Source: Candidatus Aenigmatarchaeota archaeon (lineage in GTDB: Archaea > Aenigmatarchaeota > Aenigmatarchaeia > GW2011-AR5). From it: 8,412 nucleotides of DNA. Every line of letters begins with the position of its first letter. Position 1 is the stretch's first letter. The stretch lies in NCBI GenBank assembly GCA_016198645.1, contig JACQIE010000011.1:1-8412 (forward strand), in the 5' to 3' direction. This document shows positions 2,919 through 7,744 of the stretch, piece after piece. The notes beneath the pieces were generated by a model that searched no databases, was not told where the DNA came from, and saw only the letters and a list, made by a program, of their open reading frames with translations. A program made the position numbers and the translations under genes.

Positions 2919-2927
2919 ATGATGCAA

Positions 2928-3224
2928 ATGGCAAGGATAGTGAAGCACGAAGCGAAAGGGCCCGTAGAAGTGAACGAGAACTGGGTATGCATGTGCGGCC
3001 TAAGCGGAAACAAGCCGCTGTGCGACGGCTCCCACAAGCAGACTACGATATGCATCTGTCCCTCCCCTGCCTGCCCGCTCACGGAAGAAAAAGAAAATAC
3101 TCACAGATACGAAAACGTCAAGAAAACGGAAATCAACGTCGGCGATGAGCACGACGAGGTCAAAGTCGAACGACATTTACAGATACGAAAACGTCAAGAG
3201 AAGGAAATCAACGGGCATAAATAA
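2928..3224 (+). CDS. CDGSH iron-sulfur domain protein
   Basis: The protein has the complete CDGSH signature CMCGLSGNKPLCDGSH, that is C-x-C-x2-S-x3-P-x-C-D-G-S-H. In the mitoNEET family its three Cys and one His bind a [2Fe-2S] cluster. The function is probably electron or cluster transfer; the partner is unknown. ATG 2928 was chosen because MARIVKHEAKGPVEV resembles usual archaeal CDGSH N-termini; two tandem ATGs at 2919 and 2922, directly after the nusA stop, are alternatives. After the motif, the expected short linker contains an unusual three-cysteine stretch, CICPSPACP. The remaining C-terminus (about 40 residues) is highly charged and contains a near-repeat of about 35 bases read in two frames, so the tail may be a recent duplication or partly frame-shifted. 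The position between nusA and rps12 is unusual. The next gene is a heme-type membrane protein, which suggests a shared redox role; that is an inference. Confidence 0.88.
   Translation: MARIVKHEAKGPVEVNENWVCMCGLSGNKPLCDGSHKQTTICICPSPACPLTEEKENTHRYENVKKTEINVGDEHDEVKVERHLQIRKRQEKEINGHK
3103..3138 (+). repeat. Direct repeat, copy 1 (in the CDGSH gene)
   Basis: 36 bases that recur at 3179-3213. The first 20 bases and the last 11 (GGAAATCAACG) are identical; the middle differs by one substitution and one missing base. In the CDGSH frame it encodes RYENVKKTEIN. Confidence 0.85.
3179..3213 (+). repeat. Direct repeat, copy 2 (3' end of the CDGSH gene, frame shifted)
   Basis: 35-base near-copy of 3103-3138, starting 76 bases after it. 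In the CDGSH frame it reads QIRKRQEKEING. In the +1-base frame it reads RYENVKRRKST, the counterpart of copy 1. That frame is open from an ATG at 3145 to TGA 3238-3240 (31 codons). Confidence 0.85.
3216..3224 (+). promoter_or_regulatory. TATA box for the ferric-reductase-like gene
   Basis: CATAAATAA overlaps the end of the CDGSH gene. Its centre is about 25 bases before ATG 3245, which again suggests a leaderless start. No ribosome site stands before this ATG, so an independent promoter is plausible. Confidence 0.5.
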
Positions 3225-3244
3225 AGCGGTTTTGCGATGATGGC

Positions 3245-3847
3245 ATGGACACGAAAAAAATACATGTCGCGGGCTTTCTGCTTATCGCGATGACGGTCGT
3301 TGCTGCGCGGGTTCTTGCGCCCTCGCCGCCGGAGGAGAGCGTTTATCTCGCAAGCGGCTTCGGATTTCTTTCGCTGCTCTCGCTTATCTTTGTGCTGGCA
3401 ATTCCGATTTTCGTGAAATATGCGGGGAGCCCGCTCACGGCTTATCTCCTTGCCAACAGGCGCTGGCTGGGCATATACGTTTTTATCTTTGCGCTCCTGC
3501 ACGTGCTTGTCGTCTATAACTTTTTCTTCGGCTGGGACGTGAGCAAGATGATAAACAACACAAACGCGCCTTTTATTGCGCTGGGCTCGATGGCGTTCCT
3601 GATACTTGCGTCCATGACCGCCACGTCTAATAACGCCTCGGTGCGCATACTCGGCAGGAACTGGAAAAGGCTTCATATGCTGATATATGTCGCGCTTGCC
3701 ATGATACTTGTGCACTCATACAGCGTAGGGCTCGTTTTCATGAGTAACCGCGCTCTTAGCGCCGTCGTCATCGCACTGGCCGCAACAGTCGTAGCTATCA
3801 AGGCTGCGATGAAGCTCGCAGCCTGGCAATCAAAACAACCTTTATAA
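3245..3847 (+). CDS. Six-helix ferric-reductase-like / MsrQ (YedZ)-like heme membrane protein
   Basis: A 200-residue integral membrane protein of the ferric reductase-like transmembrane domain family, closest by pattern to MsrQ/YedZ. Predicted hydrophobic helices: about 7-25, 38-58, 75-95, 110-126, 145-162 and 169-188. Likely b-heme ligands are His86 (in FALLHVLVVYN), His144 (in NWKRLHMLIY) and His157 (in MILVHSYS). The 13-residue His144-His157 spacing and the RRWLG / LGRNWKRLH blocks are hallmarks of MsrQ-type proteins. MsrQ passes electrons from the quinone pool or a flavin enzyme to the periplasmic methionine sulfoxide reductase MsrP; no msrP is visible here, so the acceptor is open. The adjacent CDGSH protein is a candidate soluble electron carrier (inference). 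ATG 3245 was chosen for its TATA spacing and because a short charged end precedes helix 1. Its final codons overlap the TATA box of rps12. Confidence 0.85.
   Translation: MDTKKIHVAGFLLIAMTVVAARVLAPSPPEESVYLASGFGFLSLLSLIFVLAIPIFVKYAGSPLTAYLLANRRWLGIYVFIFALLHVLVVYNFFFGWDVSKMINNTNAPFIALGSMAFLILASMTATSNNASVRILGRNWKRLHMLIYVALAMILVHSYSVGLVFMSNRALSAVVIALAATVVAIKAAMKLAAWQSKQPL
3841..3847 (+). promoter_or_regulatory. TATA box for rps12-rps7
   Basis: TTTATAA, coinciding with the stop codon of the membrane-protein gene. It is centred about 31 bases before ATG 3875, giving a predicted start about 5 bases before the gene. It would let uS12-uS7 be transcribed independently of the upstream redox pair. Confidence 0.5.
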
Positions 3848-4972: not shown

Positions 4973-5167
4973 ATGACAAATCGTATTAGTCCGTCGAGAG
5001 AAGTAAATGAAGCATTTAGCAACGACCCGATACATTTCTTTCCGGCAACTACAGAAGCCTTACAGGCTGCTTATAATGACACAAAAGGCGTTTGGTATAA
5101 AAGCGAAATTCTACGAGCAGAACTTGTCCATGGCAGACATCAGCCGCCTGAATTATATAGAGAGTAA
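4973..5167 (+). CDS. Small protein of unknown function (64 residues)
   Basis: I do not recognise this protein. It is a short, soluble-looking, mildly acidic to neutral polypeptide with no membrane segment, no cysteine pairs and no repeat. The ATG is only 4 bases after the uS7 stop, in the spacing expected of an operon gene, but the only ribosome-site-like sequence is GGAG at 4957-4960, 12 bases upstream. Codon use is visibly more AT-rich than in the neighbouring ribosomal genes. It may be a real lineage-specific gene or an open frame at the start of the noncoding structured region that follows. Confidence 0.45.
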   Translation: MTNRISPSREVNEAFSNDPIHFFPATTEALQAAYNDTKGVWYKSEILRAELVHGRHQPPELYRE

Positions 5168-5188
5168 TTCCAGTTGTTGAGCGGAATT
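5166..5188 (+). repeat. Inverted repeat / hairpin overlapping the end of the small ORF
   Basis: AATTCC (5166-5171) and GGAATT (5183-5188) are complementary and extend by a T-G wobble and a G-C pair (5164-5165 with 5189-5190), with an 11-base loop. It is the first of several hairpins in 5160-5400. Confidence 0.5.
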
Positions 5189-5192
5189 GCAG

Positions 5193-5274
5193 TAAACTAC
5201 CCGCTGGTGAAGGACGCACGATGCTGCATGACAGCTTCGCTTTTCACCGTGCGTCCTTGCAAAGCGGGCGTTTA
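5193..5274. ncRNA. Putative structured RNA: long imperfect stem-loop upstream of EF-2
   Basis: A nested inverted repeat of 82 bases. TAAAC (5193-5197) pairs with GTTTA (5270-5274). After a small internal loop, CCCGCT (5200-5205) pairs with AGCGGG (5263-5268). A 4x4 internal loop follows, GGTG against GCAA. Then AAGGACGCACG (5210-5220) pairs perfectly with CGTGCGTCCTT (5248-5258). The 27-base apical part holds a further small hairpin, GCTG/CAGC (5223-5226 with 5232-5235). GGTGAA (5206-5211) could instead pair with TTCACC (5242-5247), an alternative fold. No protein frame explains it. It does not show RNase P, SRP, 5S or tRNA motifs that I can recognise, so the class is unknown. It could also be a leader or transcript-end structure, or an imperfect palindrome acting as DNA. 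Confidence 0.5.
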
Positions 5275-5305
5275 GTAAGGAAAGGACTTTTAGCGCATGA
5301 TTCGG

Positions 5306-5311
5306 TTTTTT
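5306..5311 (+). terminator. Possible U-tract terminator after the structured RNA
   Basis: Six consecutive T residues lie 32 bases after the long stem-loop. Archaeal polymerase terminates at U-rich tracts without needing a hairpin. The position would end the rps12-rps7 transcript, or a transcript of the structured RNA, ahead of the EF-2 promoter. Weak evidence on its own. Confidence 0.3.
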
Positions 5312-5328
5312 GGCGACACGGGGTCGTC
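5312..5328 (+). repeat. Short hairpin
   Basis: GGCGAC (5312-5317) pairs with GTCGTC (5323-5328), including one G-T pair, across a 5-base loop ACGGG. Confidence 0.35.
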
Positions 5329-5339
5329 TTCGGCTTTAT

Positions 5340-5365
5340 TACGAGGAATCTTTGAATTCCTCGTA
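5340..5365 (+). repeat. Perfect hairpin, 10-base-pair stem
   Basis: TACGAGGAAT (5340-5349) and ATTCCTCGTA (5356-5365) are perfectly complementary around a 6-base loop CTTTGA. It is the first of two back-to-back perfect hairpins in a stretch without a credible gene. Confidence 0.7.
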
Positions 5366-5368
5366 TAC

Positions 5369-5396
5369 ACAAAGACTTTCTGTGGAAAGTCTTTGT
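5369..5396 (+). repeat. Perfect hairpin, 12-base-pair stem
   Basis: ACAAAGACTTTC (5369-5380) and GAAAGTCTTTGT (5385-5396) are perfectly complementary around the tetraloop TGTG. It begins three bases after the preceding hairpin and is followed by AT-rich sequence. The pair may form an RNA module, a terminator-like element or a DNA palindrome. Confidence 0.7.
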
Positions 5397-5422
5397 TGTA
5401 ATTATTTGTCGTTCTTGGTTAG

Positions 5423-5501
5423 TATATATCCTCCCAAATCCAACACTATAGCGTTCGTTGATATTATCGCCGCTCTAAACGACATGGGAAAGGAATAAAA
5501 A
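5423..5501 (+). promoter_or_regulatory. Candidate EF-2 promoter region (two TATA-like elements)
   Basis: TATATAT at 5423-5429 is a strong TATA box but predicts a start near 5452 and a leader of about 90 bases. AATAAAAA at 5494-5501 predicts a start near 5523 and a short leader of about 20 bases that still contains the ribosome site at 5531. The second fits the gene better. The rest of 5400-5540 is AT-rich and shows nothing else I can name. Confidence 0.4.
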
Positions 5502-5530
5502 GTATTGGATAGTAAAGAGAAAGGAAATAT

Positions 5531-5536
5531 GGAGGT
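5531..5536 (+). promoter_or_regulatory. Strong Shine-Dalgarno site of EF-2
   Basis: GGAGGT is a full match to the anti-Shine-Dalgarno of archaeal 16S rRNA, placed 5 bases before ATG 5542. It fixes the EF-2 start. It contrasts with the leaderless-type starts elsewhere in the window and shows that translation begins upstream of the intron. Confidence 0.85.
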
Positions 5537-5541
5537 AAATA

Positions 5542-7744
5542 ATGACACAGGCTTCAGTAGAAACGATAGCCACACTGATGCATAAGCCCGACAAGATACG
5601 GAACATAGGAATCGCTGCCCATATCGATTGATTCTGAATTGCGGTTCAGGATTCGAGTGCATGGGAAAACGACTCTTTCCGACAACCTTGTCGCAGGCGC
5701 GGGCATGATATCAGAAGAACTGGCAGGCCAGCAGCTGTTCACGGACTTTGACAAGCAGGAGCAGGAGCGCGGAATAACCATATTCGCAGCCAATGTTTCG
5801 ATGGTTCATGACGTGGACGGCGACGAATACTTAGTAAACCTTATCGACACGCCGGGGCACGTGGATTTCGGAGGCGACGTCACGCGCGCAATGCGCGCGG
5901 TGGACGGCGCTGTCATAGTTACGGATGCCGTTGAAGGCGTCATGCCTCAGACTGAAACTGTCATCCGCCAGGCGCTGCTTGAGCGGGTGAAGCCCGTGCT
6001 CTTCATCAACAAAACGGACAGGCTCGTGAGAGAGCTGCAGCTCACCCCCGAGCAGATGCAGGAGCGTTTTGTGCGAATAATCGGGCAGGTCAACGGGCTA
6101 ATAAGCAAATACGCGGAAACGGAGTTCGCCAACAAGTGGATGGTGAAAGTCGAAGACGGCTCTGTCGCCTTCGGCTCTGCGTATAGAAAATGGGCGATAT
6201 CCGTGCCTTACATGAAGAAGACGGGGATAAGCTTTAAGGACGTCATCGAGCACACGAAGAAAGAGGAGCACGACGAACTCTCAAAGAAAGCACCGCTTCA
6301 CAAAGTATTACTTAACATGGTAGTGAAACATCTTCCCAGCCCTGCGCAGGCGCAGGTCTACAGGATACCGAGAATCTGGAAAGGGGACGAGACCAGCGAG
6401 GAAGGGCAGGACATGATAAAGCTCAACGAGAAGGGCGGCATAGCCGCCGTCATCACCAAAGTCAACCCCGACCCGCACGCTGGCTACGTCGCAACGGCGC
6501 GCATATTCTCCGGAACGATAAAGAAAGGAGACGAGGTTTATCTTATCGCGCAAAAAAAGGTGCAGAGAATCCAGCAGGTGTCCATTTACAAAGGCCCGCA
6601 ACGCGTCCAGATGGACGAGATACCGGCCGGAAACATTGTCGGCCTCGTAGGATTGACGGAGGCATTTTCCGGTGAAACGATAGCGTCAAAGGAAATACAT
6701 CCGTTTGAAAGCATAAAGCACATATTCGAAGCTGTCGTGACTAAAAGCCTCGAACCGGCGAATCCGGCCGACCTGCCGAAGCTGATTACGTTCTTGAAGC
6801 ACGCAACGAGGGAAGACCCGACGCTCGTGTCAAAAATAAACGAGAACACGGGCGAGACGCTTATTTCCGGGCTGGGCGAGCTGCACTTGGACGCGAAAGT
6901 CGAGCGCCCGCTGAAAGAAAGAGGCATTGAAATCAAGACGTCGCTGCCGATAGTCATATACCGCGAAACGGTGCGCGAGCCTTCGCCCGAAGTGGAGGAA
7001 AGGTCGCCAAACAAGCACAACCGGTTCATCCTGCGCGTTGAGCCGATGGAGGACGGCGTGCACCAGCTGTTCGCTGACGGCAAGATTGACGAAGTCATGA
7101 TACGAAAGGACCTGAAGAAGGCAGTGACTCTCCTCGTCGAAGCGGGCATGAGCAGGGACGAGGCAAAGAAAATAGTCACGATGAGCAACAACAACCTTCT
7201 CATAGACGAGTCTAAAGGCGTTCAATACCTTAACGAAACGATGAAACTCATAATCGAGGCGTTTGCAAGCGCCGTGAACGCCGGTCCCCTGGCGGGCGAG
7301 CCGTGCAACCAACTGAAGGTATTTATCACGGATGCCACACTGCACGAGGACAACGTGCACCGCGGGCCGGCGCAAGTAATACCCGTTGTCGCCCAGGGCG
7401 TCAAAGCCGCGATGATGCGGGCGAAGCCGACGCTGCTTGAGCCCGTGCAAATCGTGAGAATAGACGCGCCCGAAGAGCTCGTAGGCAACGTCATGACGCT
7501 CATTCAGAACAAGCGCGGGCAGATTTTAGATACAACGATAGAGCAGGGAACCGCGGCAGTGAAGGCGAAGATACCCGTGGCGGAGACGTTCGGCCTTGAA
7601 GCGGCGCTGAAAGGCAATACCGAAGGCAAGGGATTCTACTCATTGATAGATGTGTTGTTTGAGAAACTGCCGGAAGACCTGAAGATGGACGTCGTCAGAA
7701 AGATACGCCAACGCAAAGGATTGCCCGAATTGATGCAGCAGTAA
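5542..7744 (+). CDS. fusA: Translation elongation factor 2, interrupted by a 31-base intron: join(5542..5628, 5660..7744)
   Basis: GTPase that drives ribosomal translocation. Exon 1 encodes 29 residues ending KIRNIGIAAHID, followed at once by TGA. Exon 2 continues HGKTTLSDNLVAGAGMISEELAG and runs 694 residues. Joined, the protein is 723 residues, normal for archaeal EF-2. Motifs in the spliced numbering: P-loop AHIDHGKTT (26-34), RGIT (66-69), DTPGH (92-96), NKTD (146-149), FGSAYRKWAIS for G5. The diphthamide loop LHEDNVHRGPAQVIP has His596 as the modified residue. All catalytic motifs are intact, so the gene is not decayed; the interruption falls only inside the P-loop. The start is fixed by the GGAGGT at 5531 and by the usual N-terminal length. 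The unspliced reading gives a 29-residue peptide and, from a TTG at 5639, a P-loop-damaged fragment. No tuf or rps10 follows in the window. Confidence 0.95.
5629..5659 (+). other. Intron in the EF-2 mRNA with bulge-helix-bulge splice junctions
   Basis: Excising exactly 31 bases (phase 0) restores IAAHID|HGKTT. The RNA around it folds as: exon helix CCCAU (5618-5622) with AUGGG (5661-5665); central four-base helix AUCG (5623-5626) with CGAG (5654-5657), three Watson-Crick pairs plus one A-G mismatch; three-base bulges AUU (5627-5629) and UGC (5658-5660); inner helix GAUUCUGAA (5630-5638) with UUCAGGAUU (5645-5653), nine pairs including two G-U; loop UUGCGG (5639-5644). Archaeal tRNA-splicing endonuclease cuts after the second base of each bulge, which gives 5628|5629 and 5659|5660, precisely the boundaries required by the protein. 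An alternative register (UCGA with UCGA, bulges UUG and GUG) would remove 29 bases and leave the frame broken. There is no room for a homing endonuclease. Confidence 0.88.

What the first reader, a model, noticed from the sequence alone, without database searches (positions are those of the whole stretch)
5618..5665. A 31-base bulge-helix-bulge intron splits the P-loop of the EF-2 gene
Seen in the sequence: EF-2 is open, conserved and motif-complete on both sides of one 31-base insertion that begins with an in-frame stop and shifts the frame. Deleting exactly 5629-5659 restores IAAHIDHGKTT. The flanks fold into a 3-4-3 bulge-helix-bulge with a nine-pair inner stem and five-pair exon stem, and the predicted cut after base 2 of each bulge matches both protein-derived boundaries. 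Established: archaeal tRNA and rRNA introns are removed at this motif, and a few protein genes (best known is crenarchaeal cbf5) carry such introns; ARMAN-type splicing endonucleases accept relaxed motifs. An mRNA intron this short, in an essential GTPase, is to my knowledge very unusual.
Basis: partly seen in the sequence, partly recalled or inferred. Interest (0 to 1): 0.95.

Follow-up and report, generated by a model that had tools for sequence, protein, structure and literature searches.

The report
Tiny introns inside archaeal translation genes
In an uncultured archaeon the gene for EF-2, an essential translation factor, is interrupted inside its GTP-binding site by a 31-letter insert that is predicted to be spliced out of the messenger RNA by the machinery that normally trims transfer RNAs, and inserts of the same build interrupt EF-2 and several other core genes in other genomes of its phylum.

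Summary
EF-2 (TIGR00490) is open on both sides of a 31-nt frameshifting insert (5629-5659). The protein fixes its boundaries uniquely, and they match bulge-helix-bulge (BHB) cleavage after base 2 of each bulge. One correction: the central helix has three canonical pairs plus an A·G mismatch. No second EF-2 was found in the genome held (70% complete).

Both same-genus relatives lack the insert. Inserts of the same build (14-35 nt, median 31) occur in EF-2 of 14 of 137 genomes of the phylum with an EF-2 hit (a 15th is partial), and in aIF2-gamma, aIF5B, RtcB, CarB and TopoVI-B: 35 mapped introns, 18 genomes. In BHB register 127 of 140 central pairs form; 10,000 permutations of 3' partners never exceeded 91. 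The only RtcB found in this genome, the likely ligase, is itself split by two.

Best reading: pre-mRNA mini-introns, likely cut by EndA and joined by RtcB. A 2020 paper knew one BHB intron in an archaeal mRNA's coding part, cbf5. EndA was not found in this incomplete assembly but is in 26 of 31 genomes of the order searched; no RNA data were available. Boldest lead: 20 of 32 introns lie within six codons upstream of intein sites.

The parts
5531..5536 (+). GGAGGT, Shine-Dalgarno-like site 5 nt before the EF-2 start codon
   Evidence: sequence; function inferred
5542..5628 (+). EF-2 exon 1, codons 1-29 (MTQ...AAHID)
   Evidence: translation; matches the N-terminus of relatives in tblastn
5618..5622 (+). 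outer (exon) helix, 5' strand CCCAU
   Evidence: 5 of 5 pairs
5623..5626 (+). central helix, 5' strand AUCG (exon 1)
   Evidence: 3 canonical pairs + outermost A.G mismatch
5627..5629 (+). 5' bulge AU|U, predicted cut between 5628 and 5629
   Evidence: cleavage inferred
5629..5659 (+). 31-nt intron, begins with an in-frame TGA and shifts the frame
5630..5639 (+). inner helix, 5' strand
   Evidence: 10 pairs (last is U.G)
5644..5653 (+). inner helix, 3' strand
5654..5657 (+). central helix, 3' strand CGAG (intron)
   Evidence: same CGAG in the site-A introns of G011 and G050
5658..5660 (+). 3' bulge UG|C, predicted cut between 5659 and 5660
   Evidence: cleavage inferred
5661..5665 (+). outer (exon) helix, 3' strand AUGGG
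5660..7744 (+). EF-2 exon 2, from HGKTT to the stop codon
   Evidence: TIGR00490, 990 bits; Pfam GTP_EFTU to EFG_C

Best explanation
The 31-base insert at 5629-5659 interrupts the P-loop codons of the only EF-2 gene found in this genome and is likely removed from the mRNA as a bulge-helix-bulge intron, presumably cut by the tRNA-splicing endonuclease EndA and presumably rejoined by the RNA ligase RtcB. Shown by sequence: the insert, its stop and frameshift, the unique protein-derived boundaries, and the match of those boundaries to the BHB cutting rule. Also shown: 34 further inserts of 14-35 nt in EF-2, aIF2-gamma, aIF5B, RtcB, CarB and TopoVI-B of 18 genomes of the same phylum (this one included) obey the same register, and each of the 35 either shifts the frame (23) or carries an in-frame stop (12). 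Inferred: in the transcript the exon bases CCCAU and AUGGG (around the codons for Ala-His-Ile-Asp / His-Gly) pair, the intron's 3' end pairs with the last exon-1 bases, EndA cuts after base 2 of each bulge, and ligation restores IAAHIDHGKTT. Unspliced mRNA would make only a 29-residue peptide, so EF-2 output would depend on splicing. In this genome the RtcB gene is itself split by two such introns, so the likely ligase would be needed to make its own mRNA.
For: Unique boundary and BHB register. Over 27 introns: 0 of 10,000 permutations of 3' partners reach the observed central pairing; shuffled inserts score 131.8 +/- 9.9 in sum against 377. Over 35: central pairs 127 of 140, three innermost 103 of 105, at least 3 of 4 in 34 of 35, all four in 23; permutation mean 66.1, maximum 91; shuffles 175 +/- 11.6 against 482; sliding the register by 1-6 bases gives 91-154. 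Eleven of the 35 have a single protein-consistent boundary; in 9 of these the three innermost pairs form, and all 11 have at least two of four central pairs. At the same site, G000 and G011 keep ten of ten inner pairs although three pairs differ on both sides (sequences). All 35 inserts shift the frame or carry a stop. Exon 1 has a good Shine-Dalgarno-like site. No second EF-2. EndA in 26 of 31 genomes of the order, both same-genus relatives included; RtcB in 26 of 31, this genome included. cbf5 introns, with cDNA support in some species, are cut between bulge residues 2 and 3 (PMC2738675, section read).
Against: No RNA evidence. EndA was not found in this genome (70% complete). RtcB was not found in G011, which carries the same-site intron (56% complete). 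The BHB is near but not at the minimum free energy (-15.7 against -16.4) and the fold is not unusually stable (z -1.04); several others are much less stable as BHB than their MFE, for example G130 -2.6 against -23.2, RtcB-1 -0.4 against -14.3, aIF5B +1.4 against -3.3. [quoted passage not shown] the sister's EndA is short and closest to M. jannaschii EndA, and its alignment shows RAR where M. jannaschii has RKK. Two of the 35 (G005 RtcB, G073 aIF5B) break the innermost central pair. Where several boundaries fit the protein I kept the one with the best BHB score; the shuffle control chooses in the same way, the permutation control does not.
Confidence: 0.95

Rival explanations
1. Programmed ribosomal bypassing: the ribosome hops over the insert, as in T4 gene 60 or yeast mitochondrial byps, with no RNA splicing.
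For: Short inserts, often beginning near a stop codon and forming a hairpin.
Against: Known byps use matched take-off and landing codons (recalled); only 1 of 27 inserts has them, and the window's pair is GAT/GTG. Bypassing predicts no pairing between exon 1 and the intron's 3' end, yet the three innermost of these pairs form in 103 of 105 cases.
Confidence: 0.02
2. Assembly or sequencing artefact, or a recently broken EF-2 gene.
For: Metagenome-type assembly, 70% complete, 96 contigs; the EF-1-alpha gene of the same genome has one in-frame TAG without an insert.
Against: The 694-codon downstream frame is intact and 78% identical to the same-genus EF-2; no second copy; inserts of the same build at 3 neighbouring P-loop sites and elsewhere in EF-2 of 13 other genomes, all with BHB register.
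Confidence: 0.01
3. EndA cuts the mRNA here but the exons are not rejoined: the BHB is a cleavage switch that destroys EF-2 mRNA, as a BHB in a 5' UTR is processed in Haloferax HVO_1309.
For: BHB cleavage in an mRNA leader is reported for HVO_1309 (PMC7714728, passages).
Against: Without rejoining there is no P-loop: no downstream start gives one and no second EF-2 was found. The introns fall so that ligation restores the exact conserved peptide in all 35 cases (by the search criterion itself), with exactly one or a few boundaries possible.
Confidence: 0.02

Closest known systems
cbf5 pre-mRNA introns of Desulfurococcales and Sulfolobales (Crenarchaeota)
   Same: Protein-coding gene, BHB-like motif, predicted cut between bulge residues 2 and 3, patchy presence in related species (PMC2738675: abstract, Results part 1, Background).
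   Different: One gene, one site there; here EF-2, aIF2-gamma, aIF5B, RtcB, CarB and TopoVI-B, up to five introns in one gene (G074 EF-2), 14-35 nt, another phylum, and the closest enzyme in kind is M. jannaschii EndA rather than the hetero-oligomeric one.
Archaeal tRNA introns at 37/38 and rRNA BHB introns
   Same: 3-nt bulges around a 4-bp helix (PMC6379350 passages). The spliced EF-2 junction CCCAU-AUCGAU|C-AUGGG has the geometry of an anticodon arm, 5-bp stem and 7-nt loop with the intron after loop base 6, which follows from BHB geometry.
   Different: The substrate is an mRNA whose exon stem is built from codons; an A.G mismatch in the central helix.
HAC1/XBP1 mRNA splicing by IRE1 and a tRNA-type ligase (recalled; not tested)
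   Same: Works alike: endonuclease plus tRNA-type ligase, no spliceosome, mRNA substrate.
   Different: Other endonuclease and hairpin-loop cleavage; no homology claimed.
Inteins at the P-loop K|T site of EF-2 and aIF2-gamma and at IN|C of RtcB
   Same: Same genes and nearly the same codons in the same phylum.
   Different: Inteins are long open frames excised from protein; the insert here is 31 nt with a stop and a frameshift.

Membership tests
Archaeal BHB intron (broad sense) | 3-4-3 spacing: two 3-nt bulges on opposite strands separated by a 4-position helix | tested here: met
   register score not reached by any of 1000 shuffles of this insert
Archaeal BHB intron (broad sense) | cut after base 2 of each bulge coincides with independently known exon ends | tested here: met
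   single protein-consistent boundary for the window intron
Archaeal BHB intron (broad sense) | host has a splicing endonuclease EndA | tested here: inconclusive
   PF01974 in 26 of 31 genomes of the order but not found in this 70% complete genome
Archaeal BHB intron (broad sense) | host has the ligase RtcB | tested here: met
   G000:C72, PF01139, E 4.4e-151, itself interrupted
Archaeal BHB intron (broad sense) | spliced product and excised (circular) intron in RNA | not testable with these tools
   no transcript data held
Strict (canonical) BHB | all four central pairs canonical | tested here: not met
   window intron 3 of 4 (A.G outermost); 23 of 35 introns meet it
cbf5 intron family | lies in cbf5 and is homologous to that intron | tested here: not met
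   host gene is EF-2, TIGR00490
Intein | continuous open frame with splicing blocks | tested here: not met
   31 nt with a stop and a frameshift; true inteins are recognised by Pfam in G060 EF-2 and G005 aIF2-gamma
Translational bypass element | matched take-off and landing codons (recalled criterion) | tested here: not met
   GAT against GTG; 1 of 27 inserts matched

The most novel reading that the evidence does not exclude
The mini-introns are scars or shields of intein homing. An intein's homing endonuclease cuts the intein-free P-loop (or RtcB IN|C) allele; end-joining leaves a filler of about 30 nt within the recognition site; only fillers that fold into a BHB survive, because EndA and RtcB splice them out. 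The result is an allele that still works and can no longer be homed into. Introns would thus be an immune state of the gene, which explains why they sit next to intein sites and why intein-bearing and intron-bearing EF-2 genes are sisters.
Probability: 0.2. Interest if true: 0.97.

Novelty: new variant of a known kind. Interest (0 to 1): 0.92.

Why it matters
A 2020 paper states that only one BHB intron in an archaeal mRNA besides its own 5'-UTR case had been reported, cbf5 (PMC7714728); my searches (open-access PMC, no preprints) listed none in EF-2, aIF2-gamma or RtcB of this phylum. If spliced, the tRNA machinery makes the mRNAs of core translation factors in a phylum-wide, patchy fashion, with introns as short as 14 nt and up to five in one gene. 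It would mean that gene callers truncate or miss essential genes in these genomes, that translation output is tied to tRNA-splicing capacity, and that the ligase RtcB would need its own product. It makes intron gain in prokaryotes directly testable, because intron-bearing and intron-free sister genomes exist for the same codon.

Tried and rejected
Rejected: programmed bypassing (1 of 27 matched codons); broken gene or artefact; intein; cbf5-type homology (other gene). Thermodynamic folding gave no support by itself (z -1.04). Rfam: no hit in the window at gathering thresholds; one chance-level hit (RUF1, E 0.26) upstream of EF-2. tRNA introns as an internal control led nowhere: ARAGORN with introns allowed predicts some in G000, G015 and G074, but my strict BHB scan of three of them found none in two and only alternative registers in the third, so I draw nothing from them. 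An S10 intron in G074 (30 nt, central CGGG:CCCG) looks right but was not put through the boundary search and is not in the 35. G005 EF-2 has the 3' end of a site-A intron next to an N gap and is not in the 35. Several rows of the phylum searches start inside the gene at contig ends or gaps and were not followed (for EF-2 for example G046, G078, G100, G103, G110, G144, G116; for EF-1-alpha for example G065, G120, G121, G125). In the survey of this genome I set aside by eye the stop-containing alignments that lay on the antisense strand or at gene ends; two on contig C27 (L265) were not looked into. The survey's reference ORFs were called mechanically, so some of the 194 matched loci are antisense ORFs. 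Beyond the phylum only those rows that fitted into the list were seen; none of these had a stop or a late start, and most rows were not listed.

Full report
1. The observation. The window carries, on the + strand, genes for RNA polymerase A' (end) and A'' (by position and the archaeal gene order, recalled), L30e, NusA-like, a CDGSH protein, a ferric-reductase-like membrane protein, S12, S7 and EF-2. EF-2 is read as 29 codons from ATG 5542, preceded by GGAGGT, and as 694 codons from 5660 with a full aEF-2 match (TIGR00490, 990 bits). Between them lie 31 bases that begin with TGA. Only one deletion restores the conserved peptide. The two exon-intron boundaries so fixed are exactly those expected from cutting after base 2 of two 3-base bulges. 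The central helix has three canonical pairs and an A.G mismatch; outer helix 5 of 5; inner helix 9-10 pairs. Folding energy alone would not have flagged it (z -1.04; BHB -15.7 against MFE -16.4 kcal/mol).

2. Whose genome. The window is contig 71 of a 655-kb, 96-contig, 70%-complete genome. The nearest named records found are 'Candidatus Aenigmatarchaeota'; the G129 contig of the same phylum has the length and the EF-2 insert of one of them (JAPLVB010000010.1, L034). No second EF-2 was found.

3. Relatives. Both same-genus genomes (G015, G016) have EF-2 without the insert. In the same family G011 has a 30-nt insert at the same place with a different inner stem: ten of ten inner pairs are kept although three of them differ on both sides (sequences). 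G005 shows the 3' end of a same-site insert beside an N gap. G018 and G006 have 30-nt inserts at HG|KTT. Over the phylum, 156 genomes were searched and 137 had an EF-2 hit. With mapped boundaries, 14 of the 137 carry 22 EF-2 introns, at P-loop sites and at GAG|MI, FDE|QERRR, GAN|VSM, VD|TPGH, HVD|FGG and GDV|TRA. G074 EF-2 has five (29, 32, 14, 31 and 17 nt). Six EF-2 genes have instead a long open frame entering at K|T (G022, G035, G060, G062, G067, G087); for G060 Pfam confirms an intein.

4. Other genes. aIF2-gamma: 128 of 155 genomes had a hit; regions of 13 genomes were fetched and six have introns in the P-loop (five at GH|V, one at VD|H). In G005 the same gene carries both an intron and an intein. 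EF-1-alpha: 132 of 155 had a hit and no listed row showed the signature of an intron; G000 and a second copy in G035 have one TAG each, and truncated rows were not examined. RtcB: hits in 26 of 31 genomes of the order; the one RtcB of G000 has two introns, G020 and G005 one each. aIF5B of G073 has an 18-nt one. Two surveys used ORFs from 707 kb of the sister G015. In 56 of 96 G000 contigs (378 kb, window included) 194 loci matched, and EF-2, RtcB and CarB are interrupted. In 254 kb of G074, 88 loci matched, and EF-2, aIF2-gamma, TopoVI-B and probably S10 are interrupted. Names of CarB, TopoVI-B, S10 and aIF5B come from NCBIfam, as do aIF2-gamma and EF-1-alpha; RtcB from Pfam PF01139, its NCBIfam hits being RtcB-like below cut-off.

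5. The rule. All 35 mapped inserts shift the frame (23) or contain an in-frame stop (12), so none can be read through. In BHB register the three innermost central pairs form in 103 of 105 cases, four-pair helices in 23 of 35, at least three pairs in 34 of 35. Pair types at each position vary widely (for example C-G 14, T-A 11, A-T 5, G-C 3, T-G 2 at the third). Permuting the 3' halves among introns gives 66.1 +/- 5.8 pairs (maximum 91 of 10,000) against 127; shuffling intron letters with the same choice among boundaries gives 175 +/- 11.6 (maximum 219 of 2000) against 482; sliding the register gives 91-154. For 27 of them inner-helix pairs were 199 of 223. Eleven introns have only one boundary compatible with the protein; nine of these have all three innermost pairs. 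The exceptions are G005 RtcB and G073 aIF5B. Imposed BHB energies are always at or above the MFE and sometimes far above it.

6. Machinery. EndA (PF01974) is in 26 of 31 genomes of the order, absent from the G000 assembly. The sister's gene is 203 aa with N- and C-terminal EndA domains, closest to M. jannaschii EndA (1a79, E 2.9e-31). The alignment keeps the Tyr and His of the catalytic region, has RAR where M. jannaschii has RKK, and has a six-residue insertion with lysines (LKKGPK) just before the His (which residues are catalytic is recalled). Lysine-bearing loops near the active site are the proposed basis of relaxed specificity in ARMAN and crenarchaeal enzymes (PMC12397907, passages). 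That this insertion does the same here is a guess that would reconcile a short EndA with imperfect BHBs.

7. History. On an EF-2 tree of 51 rows (exon-2 part; rows chosen with a bias to interrupted genes) site A needs at least 3 changes, B 3, C 2, D 3, inteins 6. Introns come and go. In four well-supported sister pairs one member has the P-loop intein and the other an intron (G087/G085, G062/G074, G067/G066, G035/G036); the G036 EF-2 intron is not in the P-loop but at HVD|F. Of the 32 introns in the three genes that also carry inteins here, 20 lie within six codons upstream of the intein site (EF-2 13 of 22, aIF2-gamma 6 of 6, RtcB 1 of 4; the RtcB intein site is read from the Cys start and long frames). 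This is the base of the novel case. A shared liking for conserved motifs is the sober alternative, and G005 aIF2-gamma, with both, shows that the two are not exclusive.

8. Known or new. PMC2738675 (abstract, Background and Results part 1 read) describes cbf5 introns cut at the same bulge position; PMC7714728 (passages) says in 2020 that cbf5 was the only other BHB intron reported in an archaeal mRNA. Searches listed no paper on such introns in EF-2, aIF2-gamma or RtcB of Aenigmatarchaeota; the library is open-access PMC only. I rate it a new variant of a known kind.

Noticed in passing
G000:C72 (L253), minus strand, bases 227-1594: The only RtcB gene found in the window's genome has two introns (32 nt at MPDGH|FGYG, 31 nt at GFD|INC): the likely splicing ligase would be needed to make its own mRNA.
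   Followed up: partly
G000:C6 (L201), about 175-230: A 21-nt insert with an in-frame stop in carbamoyl-phosphate synthase large subunit, with central 3 of 4 and inner 5 pairs; nine boundaries fit the protein.
   Followed up: partly
L245 (G005 aIF2-gamma): One gene with a 30-nt P-loop intron and, five to six codons further, an intein with a LAGLIDADG domain.
   Followed up: yes
L168 (G074 EF-2), about 150-600: Five introns in one EF-2 gene, the shortest 14 nt with no inner helix at all.
   Followed up: yes
G000:C18 (L248), bases 33-35: EF-1-alpha has one in-frame TAG without any insert, about 30 bases from the contig end; error or recoding not tested.
   Followed up: no
window 2919-3847: A CDGSH iron-sulphur protein (PF09360) and a ferric-reductase-like membrane protein (PF01794) lie inside the RNA polymerase, L30e, NusA, S12, S7, EF-2 gene string.
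   Followed up: no
window 5165-5541: A 377-nt gap before EF-2 with a 24-nt imperfect inverted repeat (5200-5268) and a perfect 12-nt hairpin (5369-5396); no Rfam family.
   Followed up: partly
window 4973-5167: A 64-aa ORF between S7 and EF-2 without a Pfam match.
   Followed up: no
L281 (G015), 3-1985 minus: TopoVI-B of the sister genome goes from residue 111 into sequence that matches intein-containing models, in a gene that has a mini-intron in G074.
   Followed up: no
L160 (G066), EF-2 start: Same-site (D) 32-nt intron as in G074, beside an intein-bearing sister G067.
   Followed up: yes
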